Below the pieces are notes generated by a model that saw only the letters and a program-made list of their open reading frames with translations, searched no databases and was not told where the DNA came from. From contig NC_012863.1 of NCBI RefSeq assembly GCF_000026945.1, positions 124,001-188,000 of the forward strand: DNA of 64,000 bases. Direction: 5' to 3'. This DNA is from Candida dubliniensis CD36 (Eukaryota > Ascomycota > Pichiomycetes > Serinales > Debaryomycetaceae). The position numbers and the translations under genes are program-made. Positions 49,223 through 64,000 of this stretch are shown piece by piece (positions within the stretch are counted from its first letter, which is position 1; each line of letters starts with the position of its first letter).

Positions 49223-49432
49223 TGAGGAGATGTCGGATTTGTTTTTACGTAAATTGAATAGAAAAAATTATATGTCACACTAGAAAATTTGAAAAAAAAA
49301 AAGTGCTCTTTAAGATGATGATTGTAAATACTGTTTAGTTACTTTGGAAGGGGGAATCCGTTTATGCTATTGTTTTATCAAAGATCATCAGTGTAAATTC
49401 AACGTTTGTAGGTGAAAAAAAAAAATAAAACT

Positions 49433-49502
49433 GCAAGAACCGGGAATCGAACCCGGGGCCCAACGATGGCAACGTTGGATTTTACCACTAAACCATTCTT
49501 GC
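49433..49502 (-). tRNA. tRNA-Gly, anticodon GCC (copy 1)
   Basis: On the minus strand: acceptor GCAAGAA/TTCTTGC pairs 7 bp, the D-arm is GTTT-AGTGGTA-AAAT, stem CAACG/CGTTG frames loop TTGCCAT (anticodon GCC), and T-arm CCGGG-TTCGATT-CCCGG is regular. A T-rich run follows on the transcript side. It is identical over 70 nt to the copy at 51188-51257, in opposite orientation. Confidence 0.96.
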
Positions 49503-49522
49503 GACTGAGCTATTGAAGTGCT
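49503..49522. repeat. Inverted-repeat flank of tRNA-Gly copy 1
   Basis: The 5' flank of this tRNA reads, on the tRNA strand, ACTTCAATAGCTCAGTC just before the gene, the same as the flank of copy 2 (51171-51187). The inverted duplication so spans tRNA plus about 17-20 bp of 5' flank. Confidence 0.7.
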
Positions 49523-51063: not shown

Positions 51064-51170
51064 TTCAGTTATATAGTTTAAGAATTCAAAGAAAAGAGTT
51101 TATGCTGCTTACTAGAATCAACTTTTAAGGCTAATAAATATTAAGTATTCTGCCAAGCTTTTATTCGAGT

Positions 51171-51187
51171 ACTTCAATAGCTCAGTC
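51171..51187. repeat. Inverted-repeat flank of tRNA-Gly copy 2
   Basis: ACTTCAATAGCTCAGTC directly before the tRNA; the reverse complement of the flank at 49503-49519. Confidence 0.7.
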
Positions 51188-51257
51188 GCAAGAATGGTTT
51201 AGTGGTAAAATCCAACGTTGCCATCGTTGGGCCCCGGGTTCGATTCCCGGTTCTTGC
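51188..51257 (+). tRNA. tRNA-Gly, anticodon GCC (copy 2)
   Basis: Same 70-nt cloverleaf as 49433-49502, on the plus strand, with anticodon GCC in loop TTGCCAT and intact acceptor, D, anticodon and T stems. A run of T follows within 20 bp. It lies upstream of ELP6. Confidence 0.96.
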
Positions 51258-51306
51258 ATTTGTTTTTCCCCCCTTATTTTTTTTGATTCACAATTTGCTC
51301 AAACAA

Positions 51307-55633: not shown

Positions 55634-55638
55634 TTATT
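55634..55638. repeat. Target-site duplication, left (TTATT)
   Basis: Five bases TTATT directly before the element terminus TGTTC; the same five follow the right terminus GAACA at 56532-56536. Confidence 0.7.
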
Positions 55639-55846
55639 TGTTCAAAATTAGGGTGTGTAACATGGCTAATTATTAAGGATCAGCGTAATGTTTTATGTTG
55701 GTAGAGAATGTACTAATGAAGATGATACACTAATCTACTTCCTTTTATGGTAACACTTGGACATAGTAGCTCGTCCAGTGTAGAAAGGATTTTCTAGTAT
55801 ATAAAGGGTAGAATCCTCATGATTTTGTTGTATATATTTTCTATGT
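55639..55846 (+). repeat. Left inverted arm
   Basis: 208 bp from TGTTCAAAATTAGGG to TATATTTTCTATGT, inverted copy at 56325-56531. Contains TATATAAAGG at about 55798-55807, about 120 bp before the first internal ATG. Confidence 0.85.
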
Positions 55847-55959
55847 AAGTAAGCTTAATACTATAGACACCTTTCACCTACGCAGGTATCGCTTTCGATT
55901 CCAAACAAGATTAGAATTAAAATGGCGTTGTTAACAGCATTAAAATCAGTTTCAAAATT

Positions 55960-56457
55960 ATGGGTCCCAAGAATAAATCAAGTATTCCTGACGATAATCA
56001 ATTAAGTAGTGACGACGTTGAAATGGTTTCCCCAATTCATGACCCATACATTGGTCTCCCACTGGAGCAATTCCGGAAACAACAACATACCCGGATTGAG
56101 TGGGAGACACACTCCAATATCATTTTGAAAGGAGCATTAGAACCCTGGGATAACAAAAAGGGTAAGCAATTTGATGGTACAGAAAAAGTTGAAATCTTTG
56201 AAGCTGCTTTCCAAGCATTTCCAGGAATTTATGAATACACTAAGAATCCAAGTGGTGGTTTCCAGGTTATGCGTGATATGAACGTCAATTACACGAATGA
56301 TGCTGAAAAGAATTTTATTGCTGAACATAGAAAATATATACAACAAAATCATGAGGATTCTACCCTTTATATATTAGAAATCCTTTCTACACTGGACGAG
56401 CTACTATGTCCAAGTGTTACCATAAAAGGAAGTAGATTAGTGTATTATCTTCATTAG
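55960..56457 (+). CDS. Unrecognised 165-aa reading frame inside the inverted-repeat element
   Basis: Not recognised. The frame begins MGPKNKSSIPDDNQ and is charged and polar, with LEQFRKQQHTRIEWETHSN and a Trp/Pro segment GALEPWDNKKGKQFDGTEK, then helical sequence. Residues from about 122 onward lie in the right arm, so the C terminus is arm-derived and the original protein was probably longer or truncated here. An earlier ATG at 55922 opens a short frame in another phase (27 codons). No transposase or zinc knuckle is seen; a retroelement gag fragment is possible but unproven. Confidence 0.4.
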   Translation: MGPKNKSSIPDDNQLSSDDVEMVSPIHDPYIGLPLEQFRKQQHTRIEWETHSNIILKGALEPWDNKKGKQFDGTEKVEIFEAAFQAFPGIYEYTKNPSGGFQVMRDMNVNYTNDAEKNFIAEHRKYIQQNHEDSTLYILEILSTLDELLCPSVTIKGSRLVYYLH

Positions 56458-56531
56458 TACATTCTCTACCAACATGAAACATTCCGCTGATCCTTAATAA
56501 TTAGCCATGTTACACACCCTAATTTTGAACA
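56325..56531 (-). repeat. Right inverted arm
   Basis: Reverse complement of the left arm with about four substitutions and one indel (about 97-98% identity by eye). It holds the last 45 codons of the internal frame. Confidence 0.85.
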
Positions 56532-56536
56532 TTATT
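56532..56536. repeat. Target-site duplication, right (TTATT)
   Basis: TTATT directly after the terminus GAACA, matching 55634-55638. Confidence 0.7.
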
Positions 56537-59341: not shown

Positions 59342-62300
59342 TTAAATTGATGATATTTCTGAAAAATATTGTCTTAATATCAAAGCCAACATTTCTGGTA
59401 ATTCTTGAATATTTTTAACCACTACATAAAATTCAAATGGGAAAGAATCTAAATATTTATCAACTTTTAAAATCATTCCTCCAGTGTTATTATCAGTTAC
59501 ATAACTCACTTGTTGCATATCCATAATTGATTCATTTTTACCAGTAGTAGAAGTGGTTATTCCATCAATAATAACAAATACCATCATGATTTTTTCTTCT
59601 CTAGCTTTTCTTACCATTCTTAATATAGTTTCATGATCTTCACATACTCCATCAGATAAAATAATTTGTAATTGCCATAAATCATTATTACCACCATTAA
59701 TAGTTGATTTTGCATCTTGGAATATTTTCAATGATTCATTACATAATAATTTCATATCAGTTTTAGTTTGTTGGAAATCAAACCATTGGAAAATTTTCGC
59801 TCCCATTTCTTGAGAATTATTAAATGGTTTATTAAATGATTGAACAACTTTAACATCTTCACCAAATCTAACAATTGATAATCCACCACTTTCTAATTGA
59901 CTTAATGCTTTAGAAACAAGTGCAATACTATGAAATGCCAATTCAGTGGATTTACTTTCACTCATTGATTTAGAATCATCAACTGCTATCATGATTTGAT
60001 ATTGTCTTTTCGATGGTTTGGTTCTTCTTAACCAAATTTTATCTTTTTTGAAATCAGAAGCAATATATGGAATAATTCGTTTCATATTTAATCTTTTCCC
60101 AGTTTTATAATCACCTCGTAATTTTGTCGCTAATGTAGGTTCTAAAATTAACCGTAATTGTTCACATAATCCTGAAGCTAATTCTTGAGTGGCCAATTCA
60201 CTATTTTTCCATAATTTACGAGCAACTTCTAATTCAATTGGTGGGGTATTATTAATTTCATCAAGTTCTATTGGTGATACATTCTCAGACATTTCTTCAT
60301 CATCCAATTCTTCTTCTTCTTCTTCTTCTTCCTCGTCATCAATTTCATTGGATTTCATCATATCTTCTAAATTATCAGTGATTTTTCTTTCTCCCATAAA
60401 GGCACTCTTTGCTTCACCTTCAAAATCACCATCAGGATTATCATCTTTAATTTCGCCCGATTCTAAATCATCCATTTCCTCTTCATTCTCCTCATCTTTT
60501 TCTTCCTTTATTTCAATATCTTCTTGACCTTCATTCTCTTCCTCCTCATCATCAATGGCTTTATCTTCATCAATTGATTGTACTTGCTCTTTATCAGCTG
60601 CTCCTAAGGCTTGAGTATCAAAATCAGCATTCTCACCATCAACATGTTGAAATTCATCCGGTTTAATATTTGCTGAATTTTCTTCTTCATTATCTTTCTC
60701 TTGTTGTTCTTGTTTAATAACATCCAAAATTTCTTGTCGACGACGATGAAATTCTTTTAATGAATCTCCTAATTGTTTTAATGATTCATTAGCTTTTTCA
60801 CGAGCATCATCTTGTACAGATTTATCTTCTTCTTCTTCCTCAGACTTTTGTTGGTTCTCTTGTTGATCCATTGAAGCAGCAGTTCCTGAGGCACCAATAT
60901 CATTATTTTCTTCCATAACTTGATTATCGGCACCTTCTCCTTTTTCTCCAGATTCTTGTTTTACAGCTGAATCCATATCAACATCTTCAGTATCAATATT
61001 ATTGGCTCCTTCAATACCTTCTGCTGTTGGTTCTTGATCATCATTATCATTGTCATTTCCTCCTTCTTCATTTTCTGGTGAAGGTTTTTCATTATCTTCA
61101 CCAACAAGATCATCTTCATTTTCTGATTCCATGACATCTTCATTGATTTCATTATTACCATTAGATTCGTTGTCAACATCATTTTCCTCAGGTTCTTCTT
61201 CAAGTTCTTCTTCTCTTTCTTCATTGGTTGGATCCATTTCTTCATCTTCTTCACCGTTATCATTGGATTTTTCCTCATCATGTTCATCATCTTTCATTTC
61301 AATATCATCATCCAAATTATCATCGAATTTATCACCATCTTCATCTTCTTCATCTTCTCCTTTCATTTCATCATCATCATCATTATCTAAATTCATATCT
61401 TCAGGTAAATCTAATGTCTCAGTTTCAGGCACATGATCTTCCAATTTTTCATTCTCATCTTCATTATTCTTTACATCATCTTCTTGTTCACCAACATCTT
61501 TCTCATCATCTCCATCATCGCCTTCTTCCTGTTGTTCCTCTTTTTCATCTTCATTACCTTCCTTATTGTCATTATTATCTTTAGGTTTAGTTTCATTTTC
61601 TTCATCTTCCATTGCTTCCATTTCATCATCATTATTATTATTGGAATTTTCTGGTAATTTATCTGAATCTTTCTCCTTTTTATCCTCTTTAACTTCTTCA
61701 TCCCACATTTTTTCATCAATGGCATTAGGATCTAAATCATCAATATCATCAATTTCTTCATCCAATTCTTCTTCATTATCGCTGTTCCCCTTTTCTTCAT
61801 CATCATCTTTTTCTTGATCTGATGCTTCTTCTAATTGTCCAGCCATATCACCTTCAATATCAACTGCATCATCATTTCCTTCTTCTTCTTCTCCTTCATC
61901 TTTTTCTTTATTTTCTTCATTTGGTTGTTGAGCTTGTTCAGATAAATCTTCATCATCTTCAACATCATTAGAATTATTTTGTGCCCCTTCTCCATCACCT
62001 AATCCAGTACCATCATGTAAATTATTATTATCATCTTTTTGTTCATTTGGTGCCTCTGGAGTACAAAACCCTTTCGTTGCCAATGTATAAAGTGATGACG
62101 ATAAGATAAATGTCGCTTTTGAAAGATCATAATAATTTAATCTAACTTTACCAAATATTTTCAAACATAATTGGTAATAATGATTCAATATGGGGAAGGT
62201 GAATGAAGTTAATGCTGATATCAATTTTGATGATTGTTGATTATGTTCCACTAATGATATATTTTCAATACATTTTTGTAATTTATTACCAATGGTTAAT

Positions 62301-64000
62301 AAATGAAGATTTTTCATGTAATTGGTGATTTTATGTTGTGATAAAATTAACCAATCATCATCATCTCGACTAATTTCTTGATTCTTTTCTTGAATTTCCA
62401 TGATTTTTTGAACAGCTACTAAAATTGATGTTGTGAAAATTCTAAATTCTTTTTCAACATTTTCAATAGTTTCCACACATGTTAAAGAAGTTGAAGATTC
62501 AATATTACCATTAGCATGTGAATTATTAGTTATCCAATTCAATATGGTATCTGCAACAAATGCAAGTTGTTTATGTTCTGATTTCCATTTTTCCAATGTT
62601 ATTATCAATTCATTAACGAATTTAGAAAAATTTTCAACATTTCCAATTGTAATACTAGTGGATTGAACAACATTACTTTCATCATTAATGGAATACACAA
62701 GCTCATTTAATTTATTCTTTAACATATAAAACATGGCAACATTTGTATCATTAAATCCAAATTTTGTAATTGATTCCAAAGTCGTTATACCATAATCCAA
62801 TAATTTAGGTAACCACATCTTAATAATTCTAATATTATCAACATTCAATTTAATGGAATCTTTTACACTAATAGGTGTCAATGTAGCTGATAAATTATTA
62901 AGATTAGCCACAGTATGGAATCCATTATACCAAGAATTAAATGTAGCAATATTATCTGCTAATTTCTTAATTGGGACTCGATTAACAATTAATGAATGAA
63001 TCAAATTTTCAGTAGCAGAAAGTCCCTTTTCTTTATCAACTTGAGGAACTTCATCAGCATGAGCAGAAGTAGAACTACTAACTGCAGCTCTAAGTCTTGG
63101 TAATAAATCCAATATTTTAAAGAAATAACAGTCAGATCCTTGAGCAATAGTATTTTGGAAACTAACGGAATTGGCAATTATAAGATTGACTGATTTTTGT
63201 GTAGCAAGGATATCAGAACGGGAACTTGTTTTCAATCCTGATCGTCTAATTTCACGTAATGTGTCACTCAATAATTTTCTTTTCTGGGTTTTCAATGCTG
63301 CAATCAATTTTTTATTTGATTCTTTAAATTCTGATGGAGTTTCTTTTCTTAATCTTTCCATATCAGATACAACTTCATGAGCAAAGTCTAAGAAATTTGG
63401 CAATTGTTCTTGGGAAATCCTCTCAACATACACTTTCATATTGTTTTCAATGACATTTAGATTTTGAAGTCTCTTTGGTCTTTCAATCCAACTAGGAATC
63501 TCTTTAACAATTTGTATTTCATTACCTGTAACAATAGATTGAATTTGTGGTAATTTAACCAGATCTAATGTACCAGCTGATTCGGTGATCCCTTGTTCAA
63601 TAATTGGTTGTACAGGAGTACCCAATACAGCACGATACTTTCTAACAATCTTATACAAATTATTATGTGAACGACGAGCACTTTGTTTCAATGCATCAAT
63701 ATTGACATCTTTCCAACTAGCCAATAAAATAACTTCAGTAATATCTTTTTCCAATCTCTTTTTAGAATCTTCAATAGTTGATAAAACCGTTGGTTGAAAT
63801 TGATCATAAAATGTAACAAAATTACACAAGGCATCAACAATTGGATGATTTTTATTAATTTCAAACGCATGATTTTTAAATGCCTTTAATAATTTCAATC
63901 GAATTGTAAATTCACCACATGTGACTTTACTCATAAATACATTCAATGCTGATAATAATTTGACTGCTGGTTCTTCTTCATTATCTCCAAGCATTGGAAT
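59342..64000 (-). CDS. MDN1: Midasin, C-terminal part (5' end outside window)
   Basis: Giant nuclear AAA+ ATPase of about 4,900 residues in S. cerevisiae (Rea1) that strips assembly factors (Ytm1, Rsa4) from pre-60S particles. The 1552 residues here are its end. The frame continues past base 64000, so the ATG at 63994 is internal. The first part is helical (linker domain). Next is a very long Asp/Glu-rich region (about 60300-61950), as in all midasins. The C-terminal MIDAS/VWA domain carries the metal site VDDSKSMSES (about 59952-59995), LSDGVCED and FVIIDGI. It is convergent with PTC7. Confidence 0.95.
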   Translation of the reverse strand: MPMLGDNEEEPAVKLLSALNVFMSKVTCGEFTIRLKLLKAFKNHAFEINKNHPIVDALCNFVTFYDQFQPTVLSTIEDSKKRLEKDITEVILLASWKDVNIDALKQSARRSHNNLYKIVRKYRAVLGTPVQPIIEQGITESAGTLDLVKLPQIQSIVTGNEIQIVKEIPSWIERPKRLQNLNVIENNMKVYVERISQEQLPNFLDFAHEVVSDMERLRKETPSEFKESNKKLIAALKTQKRKLLSDTLREIRRSGLKTSSRSDILATQKSVNLIIANSVSFQNTIAQGSDCYFFKILDLLPRLRAAVSSSTSAHADEVPQVDKEKGLSATENLIHSLIVNRVPIKKLADNIATFNSWYNGFHTVANLNNLSATLTPISVKDSIKLNVDNIRIIKMWLPKLLDYGITTLESITKFGFNDTNVAMFYMLKNKLNELVYSINDESNVVQSTSITIGNVENFSKFVNELIITLEKWKSEHKQLAFVADTILNWITNNSHANGNIESSTSLTCVETIENVEKEFRIFTTSILVAVQKIMEIQEKNQEISRDDDDWLILSQHKITNYMKNLHLLTIGNKLQKCIENISLVEHNQQSSKLISALTSFTFPILNHYYQLCLKIFGKVRLNYYDLSKATFILSSSLYTLATKGFCTPEAPNEQKDDNNNLHDGTGLGDGEGAQNNSNDVEDDEDLSEQAQQPNEENKEKDEGEEEEGNDDAVDIEGDMAGQLEEASDQEKDDDEEKGNSDNEEELDEEIDDIDDLDPNAIDEKMWDEEVKEDKKEKDSDKLPENSNNNNDDEMEAMEDEENETKPKDNNDNKEGNEDEKEEQQEEGDDGDDEKDVGEQEDDVKNNEDENEKLEDHVPETETLDLPEDMNLDNDDDDEMKGEDEEDEDGDKFDDNLDDDIEMKDDEHDEEKSNDNGEEDEEMDPTNEEREEELEEEPEENDVDNESNGNNEINEDVMESENEDDLVGEDNEKPSPENEEGGNDNDNDDQEPTAEGIEGANNIDTEDVDMDSAVKQESGEKGEGADNQVMEENNDIGASGTAASMDQQENQQKSEEEEEDKSVQDDAREKANESLKQLGDSLKEFHRRRQEILDVIKQEQQEKDNEEENSANIKPDEFQHVDGENADFDTQALGAADKEQVQSIDEDKAIDDEEEENEGQEDIEIKEEKDEENEEEMDDLESGEIKDDNPDGDFEGEAKSAFMGERKITDNLEDMMKSNEIDDEEEEEEEEELDDEEMSENVSPIELDEINNTPPIELEVARKLWKNSELATQELASGLCEQLRLILEPTLATKLRGDYKTGKRLNMKRIIPYIASDFKKDKIWLRRTKPSKRQYQIMIAVDDSKSMSESKSTELAFHSIALVSKALSQLESGGLSIVRFGEDVKVVQSFNKPFNNSQEMGAKIFQWFDFQQTKTDMKLLCNESLKIFQDAKSTINGGNNDLWQLQIILSDGVCEDHETILRMVRKAREEKIMMVFVIIDGITTSTTGKNESIMDMQQVSYVTDNNTGGMILKVDKYLDSFPFEFYVVVKNIQELPEMLALILRQYFSEISSI

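What the first reader, a model, noticed from the sequence alone, without database searches (positions are those of the whole stretch)
55634..56536. Unit-like 893-bp element with ~207-bp inverted arms, TG/CA ends and TTATT target duplication
The arms (55639-55846 and 56325-56531) are inverted, near-identical, and end exactly at TGTT/AACA. Directly outside each end is TTATT. A matching 5-bp flank at both exact termini is expected about once in 1000 by chance, more in AT-rich DNA. So the object seems to have integrated as one piece with its arms already inverted. Normal LTR elements have direct LTRs, and DNA elements with TIRs usually encode or borrow a transposase; neither fits simply.
Basis: partly seen in the sequence, partly recalled or inferred. 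Interest (0 to 1): 0.75.

Follow-up and report, generated by a model that had tools for sequence, protein, structure and literature searches.

The report
Retrotransposon fragment with two left ends
An 893-base insert in a yeast chromosome is a dead piece of a virus-like jumping element that seems to have been copied wrongly, so that it carries the element's left end on both sides, yet was still inserted into the chromosome much like a normal copy.

Summary
Window 55639-56531 is an 893-bp insert with inverted arms (55639-55846, 56325-56531; 4 substitutions, 1 indel) and TTATT at each exact end. It is not a new class of element. It is a scrambled copy of a Ty1/copia LTR retrotransposon of this genome (a relative's Gag is recorded from Candida dubliniensis CD36). 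Order: one complete 270-bp LTR, leader, first 370 nt of gag, then LTR nt 208-1 reversed (1 nt deleted). Both outer ends are therefore U3 ends. Gag and reversed LTR meet at a shared 5-bp ACATA. Four full-length relatives have ordinary direct LTRs and 5-bp duplications. Best reading: two plus-strand DNAs, both starting at the polypurine tract, were fused at their 3' ends (during reverse transcription, or by end-joining of cDNAs), and integrase inserted the two-U3-ended duplex in one event. Single insertion is well supported; the fusion step is inferred. It is the only such structure among 19 well-preserved insertions of four copia LTR families searched. The empty site in C. albicans could not be checked. 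New variant of a known kind; moderate interest.

The parts
55634..55638 (.). left target-site duplication TTATT
   Evidence: sequence; chance of a 5-mer match at this spacing 117/63,097
55639..55908 (+). complete LTR, 270 bp; 93.0-93.7% identical to nine LTRs of five other loci
   Evidence: blastn; LTR limits set by the duplications of 4 full elements
55639..55846 (+). left inverted arm = LTR nt 1-208 (U3, with TATA-like box 55798-55805)
   Evidence: box
55909..55959 (+). leader; its first 8 nt GATTAGAA are complementary to tRNA-Arg(UCU) around the anticodon (possible primer site)
   Evidence: homologous to the leaders of the four full elements
55960..56329 (+). first 370 nt of gag; 4 of 369 nt differ from the gag of L009, all silent
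56325..56329 (.). junction: 5-bp ACATA shared by gag and the reversed LTR (LTR nt 204-208)
   Evidence: overlap of 5 or more in 0.73% of 220,800 simulated joins
56325..56531 (-). right inverted arm = LTR nt 1-208 reversed, with a 1-nt deletion; ends exactly at U3 nt 1 (TATA-like box 56366-56373)
56532..56536 (.). right target-site duplication TTATT
   Evidence: sequence
55960..56457 (+). open frame of 165 codons: 123 Gag residues running on into antisense LTR
   Evidence: one search found no relative at E <= 0.001, but that search admits only proteins of 0.55-1.75 times the query length, so full-length Gag was out of its reach

Best explanation
The insert is one integration of an aberrant, head-to-head cDNA of a Ty1/copia retrotransposon. 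SHOWN: it is LTR(1-270)-leader-gag(1-370) joined through 5 bp to a reversed LTR(208-1), flanked by a 5-bp direct repeat. INFERRED: plus-strand DNA synthesis starts at the polypurine tract, so every plus strand has U3 nt 1 as its 5' end. One plus strand had paused at LTR nt 208 (3' end ...TATGT). Another had passed plus-strand transfer and paused 421 nt beyond the LTR (3' end ...ACATA). Their 3' ends paired over five bases and each was extended on the other, giving an 893-bp linear duplex with a U3 end on each side. Integrase used both U3 ends (GAACA-3') as it would a U3/U5 pair and inserted the molecule with its usual 5-bp stagger. The insert should not be copied again by normal retrotransposition: it has no second LTR in direct orientation to supply the 3' R and no polypurine tract like that of the full copies. 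The confidence given is for single insertion of a head-to-head two-U3 cDNA, however it was fused; fusion by mutual priming in particular I put at about 0.4-0.45.
For: Both outer ends match U3 nt 1 of the family LTR. The right end is followed by TTATT and not by the AGGGGAG tract that precedes the 3' LTR in 4 of 4 full elements; that tract is nowhere in the insert on either strand. The duplication is 5 bp, as in 4 of 4 full elements (the solo LTR also has AAAAA on both sides but sits in a run of A, so it says little). The arms share 10 differences from the nine other LTRs aligned, so they come from one sublineage. The 5-bp overlap at the junction is longer than expected at random (0.73%). The flanks are single-copy. 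RSV integrase is assayed for concerted integration with a gain-of-function U3 end alone, in vitro (PMC10209032, passages seen).
Against: One such object only, so nothing replicates it. No empty site was seen. PMC11054761 (passages) states that integration during virus infection requires integrase action on both U3 and U5 ends. Mutual priming over 5 nt is weak pairing, and end-joining of two broken cDNAs would leave the same product. Target-site repeats can also arise when cDNA is captured at a double-strand break (PMC4516963, passages). The arms differ at 5 sites, which a single self-copied strand would not show at birth; this may be later mutation or two templates. A DNA fold of the 691-nt plus strand does not pair its 3' end with the LTR site in the minimum-energy structure.
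Confidence: 0.78

Rival explanations
1. On the fusion step (inside the best explanation): two separately broken linear cDNAs were joined head-to-head by the cell's microhomology end-joining before integrase inserted the dimer.
For: 5-bp microhomology at the junction. In mouse zygotes, joints between captured retrotransposon cDNA pieces mostly show 1-5 shared nucleotides (PMC4516963, passages). Same end structure predicted.
Against: Needs two breaks plus a join before integration. Nothing in the sequence separates it from fusion during reverse transcription.
Confidence: 0.3
2. On the fusion step: one plus strand folded back on its own U3 and copied it (intramolecular snap-back).
For: Explains exact U3 ends and the inverted arm with a single molecule.
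Against: Gives a hairpin with one open end, which needs opening or copying (inference). Arms would be identical at birth, yet differ by 4 substitutions and 1 indel while the gag piece shows no amino-acid change or indel against L009 (probability about 0.064 if the arm changes all came after insertion; weak). The four full elements have identical LTR pairs. The minimum-energy DNA fold does not show the needed pairing.
Confidence: 0.12
3. A head-to-head cDNA, or two pieces, was captured at a staggered double-strand break and not inserted by integrase; the 5-bp repeat reflects fill-in of the break.
For: Such capture with short repeats is described in mouse (PMC4516963, passages).
Against: Those insertions were truncated at both ends and lacked LTRs, as that paper's legends say, whereas both ends here are exact U3 termini and the repeat has the family's length.
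Confidence: 0.07
4. Two independent, oppositely oriented elements inserted near each other, and a deletion removed all between gag of one and the LTR of the other; the TTATT match is chance.
For: Solo LTRs and LTR fragments occur elsewhere in this genome.
Against: Chance TTATT match 0.19%. Both arms would have to belong to one sublineage with 10 shared differences that the nine other LTRs lack.
Confidence: 0.04
5. Assembly or library artefact (fold-back chimera).
For: Single copy; inverted repeats are prone to artefacts.
Against: Each arm has private differences (arm 1 at LTR nt 48, 56 and 86; arm 2 a deletion at 152), and a 5-bp duplication at exact ends is not expected of a chimera.
Confidence: 0.02
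6. A terminal-inverted-repeat DNA transposon or MITE.
For: Inverted arms and target duplication.
Against: Arms and middle are LTR, leader and gag of a local copia family; the whole unit is found once in this genome.
Confidence: 0.01

Closest known systems
Ty1/copia (Pseudoviridae) LTR retrotransposons of Candida; nearest described that I found: Tca2 of C. albicans
   Same: The parent family has integrase before RT, 270-bp LTRs, 6.25-6.36 kb, and gag and pol in one frame parted by a stop codon. Tca2 is given as 6426 bp with 280-bp LTRs and gag and pol parted by a stop (PMC7175516, passages).
   Different: The parent family's gag stop is TAA in the two copies checked, Tca2's is UGA (PMC2194720, passages). 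The insert itself has one full LTR and one reversed partial LTR, no pol, no polypurine tract and no U5 terminus. No sequence comparison with Tca2 was made.
Solo LTRs and truncated LTR-element insertions
   Same: Dead, LTR-ended, 5-bp duplication.
   Different: Those arise after integration by recombination or deletion and keep one orientation (recalled); here the inverted form seems to predate integration.
Defective retroviral DNAs with inverted ends made by aberrant plus-strand synthesis (Olsen and Swanstrom 1985, recalled; not held)
   Same: As recalled, the same kind of error: plus-strand DNA serving as template for itself or a sister strand.
   Different: Recalled only, text not seen. Here the product is a chromosomal insertion in a yeast with a 5-bp duplication.
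DIRS-type retrotransposons with inverted terminal repeats (recalled)
   Same: Inverted termini.
   Different: As recalled they use a tyrosine recombinase and make no target duplication; this insert has a duplication and copia LTR sequence.

Membership tests
Ty1/copia LTR retrotransposon (derivative of) | Sequence homology to a full-length copia element | tested here: met
   LTR 93.0-93.7%, leader plus gag 98.3% identical to L009. L009 pol: RVT_2 and Pol_BBD over cut-off, rve below its cut-off (20.1 against 32.6 bits) and ahead of RT; RVT_2 over cut-off at the L011 and L012 elements too
Ty1/copia LTR retrotransposon (derivative of) | 5-bp target-site duplication | tested here: met
   TTATT both sides; 5 bp in 4 of 4 full elements
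Ty1/copia LTR retrotransposon (derivative of) | Two LTRs in direct orientation | tested here: not met
   Second LTR is partial and inverted
Ty1/copia LTR retrotransposon (derivative of) | Polypurine tract beside the 3' LTR | tested here: not met
   AGGGGAG precedes the 3' LTR in 4 of 4 full elements; absent from the insert on both strands
Ty1/copia LTR retrotransposon (derivative of) | Primer-binding site after the 5' LTR | tested here: inconclusive
   8 nt complementary to tRNA-Arg(UCU); that tRNA was tried because of a recalled Tca2 primer, and 8 nt is short
Tca2 family | Sequence similarity to Tca2 gag or pol | not tested
   No Tca2 record was reached; the Gag search returned one protein, from C. 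dubliniensis CD36
TIR DNA transposon / MITE | Several copies of the same unit with TIRs | tested here: not met
   The 903-bp query matches over its full length at one place only, its own
Single integration by integrase | Empty site with one TTATT in an outgroup | not testable with these tools
   No other fungal genome held; flanks are single-copy in this genome

The most novel reading that the evidence does not exclude
Reverse transcription of LTR elements has a short-cut in which two plus-strand DNAs fuse 3' end to 3' end and make small, integration-competent molecules with two U3 ends and no U5 end. Such molecules would be a natural source of TIR-like units derived from LTR elements, overlooked because LTR finders look for direct repeats. 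In this family the LTR's U5 end is ...ATAA (TG...AA), so a two-U3 molecule with CA at both ends may even be the better integrase substrate.
Probability: 0.3. Interest if true: 0.6.

Novelty: new variant of a known kind. Interest (0 to 1): 0.4.

Why it matters
It is a chromosomal fossil of a reverse-transcription error that would normally leave no trace. It suggests that integrase can use two U3 ends in vivo and insert them with a normal 5-bp stagger. If this recurs, annotation that looks for direct LTRs misses a class of insertions, and inverted-arm objects called TIR elements may sometimes be LTR derivatives.

Tried and rejected
Rejected: TIR transposon (single copy, LTR sequence); nested independent insertions; inversion of the 3' end of a normal element (the inverted piece stops at LTR nt 208 inside and at exact U3 nt 1 outside, with no polypurine tract); autointegration (would place an LTR terminus, not LTR nt 208, at the internal joint; inference).

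Led nowhere: protein search with the 165-aa frame (none at E <= 0.001 among 4 candidates; full-length Gag lies outside its length limits); Pfam with Gag and with the 165-aa frame (none); DNA fold of the plus strand.

Literature, 10 searches of an open-licence library: Tcd3 plus C. dubliniensis plus retrotransposon (0 papers); inverted LTR with template switch (0); Tca2 (13, passages of two read); 'inverted LTRs' plus retrotransposon (1, on Dictyostelium, not opened); Olsen/Swanstrom title words (0); plus-strand strong-stop plus self-priming (0); head-to-head/palindromic (29, 20 listed, passages of one read); C. dubliniensis CD36 plus LTR (1, passages read, on non-LTR elements); (16, 15 listed, none opened; none of the 15 rows had 'inverted LTR' or 'palindromic LTR'); concerted integration with U3 and U5 LTR (4, passages of two read). 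I saw nothing of this kind in print in these listings and passages; absence is not shown.

Base rate: 13 RVT_2 matches in the genome. Apart from this family, four of those loci regions were fetched; three gave an LTR pair, the fourth (L032) only overlapping tandem-like repeats and was dropped. The remaining RVT_2 places were not followed. LTRs of the three families and of this one were searched genome-wide. Well-preserved insertion loci: 6 (this family), 4, 4 and 5 = 19; 1 of 19 (this one) has oppositely oriented LTR pieces of the same family within 3 kb, judged from match coordinates. Seven further loci with only old or partial LTR matches were left out of the 19; none of these shows an inverted pair in the listings. 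Duplications of the three other families' loci were not checked. Ty3/gypsy families were not surveyed. Counts are lower bounds by the tool's own statement.

Full report
Observation. TTATT lies at 55634-55638 and 56532-56536, directly outside TGTTC and GAACA. At the same spacing, two 5-mers agree at 117 of 63,097 positions of the window (0.19%).

Identity. The window lies in a 14.6-Mb genome of 8 contigs. The Gag of a related copy (L009) is recorded as a putative retrotransposon protein of Candida dubliniensis CD36, 100% identical, on a contig as long as contig C4. A search of this genome with the insert finds four 6.25-6.36-kb elements with direct 270-bp LTRs (L009 on C4, L010 on C2, L011 and L012 on C6), one solo LTR (L013) and three short old matches. 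The four full elements have 5-bp duplications (ATAAC, ACAGA, AATCT, CTTTC) and identical LTR pairs. The solo LTR has AAAAA on both sides but lies in a run of A. The pol of L009 matches Pol_BBD and RVT_2 and, below its cut-off, rve, with integrase ahead of RT, so this is Ty1/copia.

Anatomy. From the left, the insert is: a complete LTR (55639-55908); a 51-nt leader whose first 8 nt can pair with tRNA-Arg(UCU); gag nt 1-370 (55960-56329); then LTR nt 208-1 reversed (56325-56531). The last two overlap by ACATA. Past the overlap, gag of L009, L010 and L012 reads TCAAG, while the insert follows the reversed LTR; L011 differs there and does not help. Of 220,800 simulated joins between L009 leader plus gag and the reversed LTR, 0.73% have an overlap of 5 or more. 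The right end is U3 nt 1 exactly and is followed by TTATT, not by the polypurine tract that precedes the 3' LTR of the four full copies; that tract is absent from the insert.

Why one integration. The LTR limits were set by the full elements, independently of the insert, and both outer ends of the insert hit U3 nt 1. The duplication has the family's length. The two arms share 10 differences from the nine other family LTRs (nt 6, 55, 59, 71, 79, 83, 100, 143, 145, 169), so they come from one sublineage. Two independent insertions joined by a deletion would need a chance match at 0.19% and the same otherwise unseen sublineage twice.

How the molecule was made (inferred). Both ends are U3 ends. 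Plus-strand synthesis begins at the polypurine tract (established for LTR elements; recalled), so each plus strand begins at U3 nt 1. Fusion of two plus strands at their 3' ends, one within its LTR at nt 208 and one 421 nt past its LTR, gives exactly this duplex. Mutual priming over ACATA/TATGT during reverse transcription is my first choice, because it yields a complete duplex in one step. End-joining of two broken cDNAs gives the same sequence and cannot be told apart here; in mouse zygotes, joints between captured retrotransposon cDNAs mostly have 1-5 shared nucleotides (PMC4516963, passages). A snap-back of one strand is less likely, since it yields a hairpin with one open end. In vitro, RSV integrase is assayed for concerted integration with a gain-of-function U3 end alone (PMC10209032, passages), so two U3 ends are not a bar in that system. 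Against this, a review states that integration in infection requires action on both U3 and U5 ends (PMC11054761, passages).

Age. The arms differ by 4 substitutions and 1 indel: arm 1 holds three private changes, arm 2 one deletion, and at one site each differs from the other and from the nine other LTRs. The gag piece differs from L009 at 4 of 369 nt, all silent, whereas LTR plus leader differ at 20 of 321 (17 of 270; 3 of 51). Of the four gag sites, one is private to the insert, two are shared with L010 and L011, and one falls where L010-L012 have a gap. If the arm changes all came after insertion, the chance of no amino-acid change and no indel in gag is about 0.064. This weakly favours arms that already differed at birth, that is two different templates, or a young insert. 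It is also what selection to keep a truncated Gag would give; I hold that as unlikely.

Fate. The insert lacks a direct second LTR, a polypurine tract and pol, so it should be dead. Both arms keep a TATA-like box (55798-55805, 56366-56373) pointing inwards, and a 165-codon frame (123 Gag residues plus antisense LTR) remains open. No relative of that frame as a whole was found within the search's length limits.

Frequency. Among 19 well-preserved insertion loci of four copia LTR families, this is the only one with inverted LTR pieces (7 old or partial loci set aside; other families not surveyed).

Limits. No C. albicans or second C. dubliniensis genome is held, so the empty site is untested. 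No reads were available. One case cannot show a pathway. The retroviral precedent is recalled and was not held.

Noticed in passing
L009-L013: The family's LTR is TG...AA rather than TG...CA: 4 of 4 full elements end in AAATAA directly before the 5-bp duplication; the solo LTR ends alike but in a run of A.
   Followed up: partly
L009-L012: L010, L011 and L012 share a 76-column gap early in gag; a gag frame of 200 codons or more is listed only from an internal ATG in L010 and L012 and not at all in L011. L009 has an open gag but pol in two frames. Pol is one long open frame in L011 and L012. Copies may depend on each other's proteins.
   Followed up: partly
L009 2540-2542; L012 6127-6129: gag and pol are in one frame parted by a TAA stop, so pol expression needs stop bypass or another start; Tca2 has UGA there (PMC2194720, passages).
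   Followed up: partly
window 49423-49522 and 51168-51267: Two tRNA-Gly(GCC) genes form a 100-bp inverted pair, 96% complementary.
   Followed up: no
window 55960-56457: Open 165-codon frame joining the Gag N-terminus to antisense LTR, downstream of an LTR with a TATA-like box; could make a truncated Gag.
   Followed up: partly
window 59342-63994: Very long acidic open frame, 1550 codons as listed, starting 6 bases from the window end; looks like the C-terminal part of a midasin-like AAA protein (from recall, not tested).
   Followed up: no
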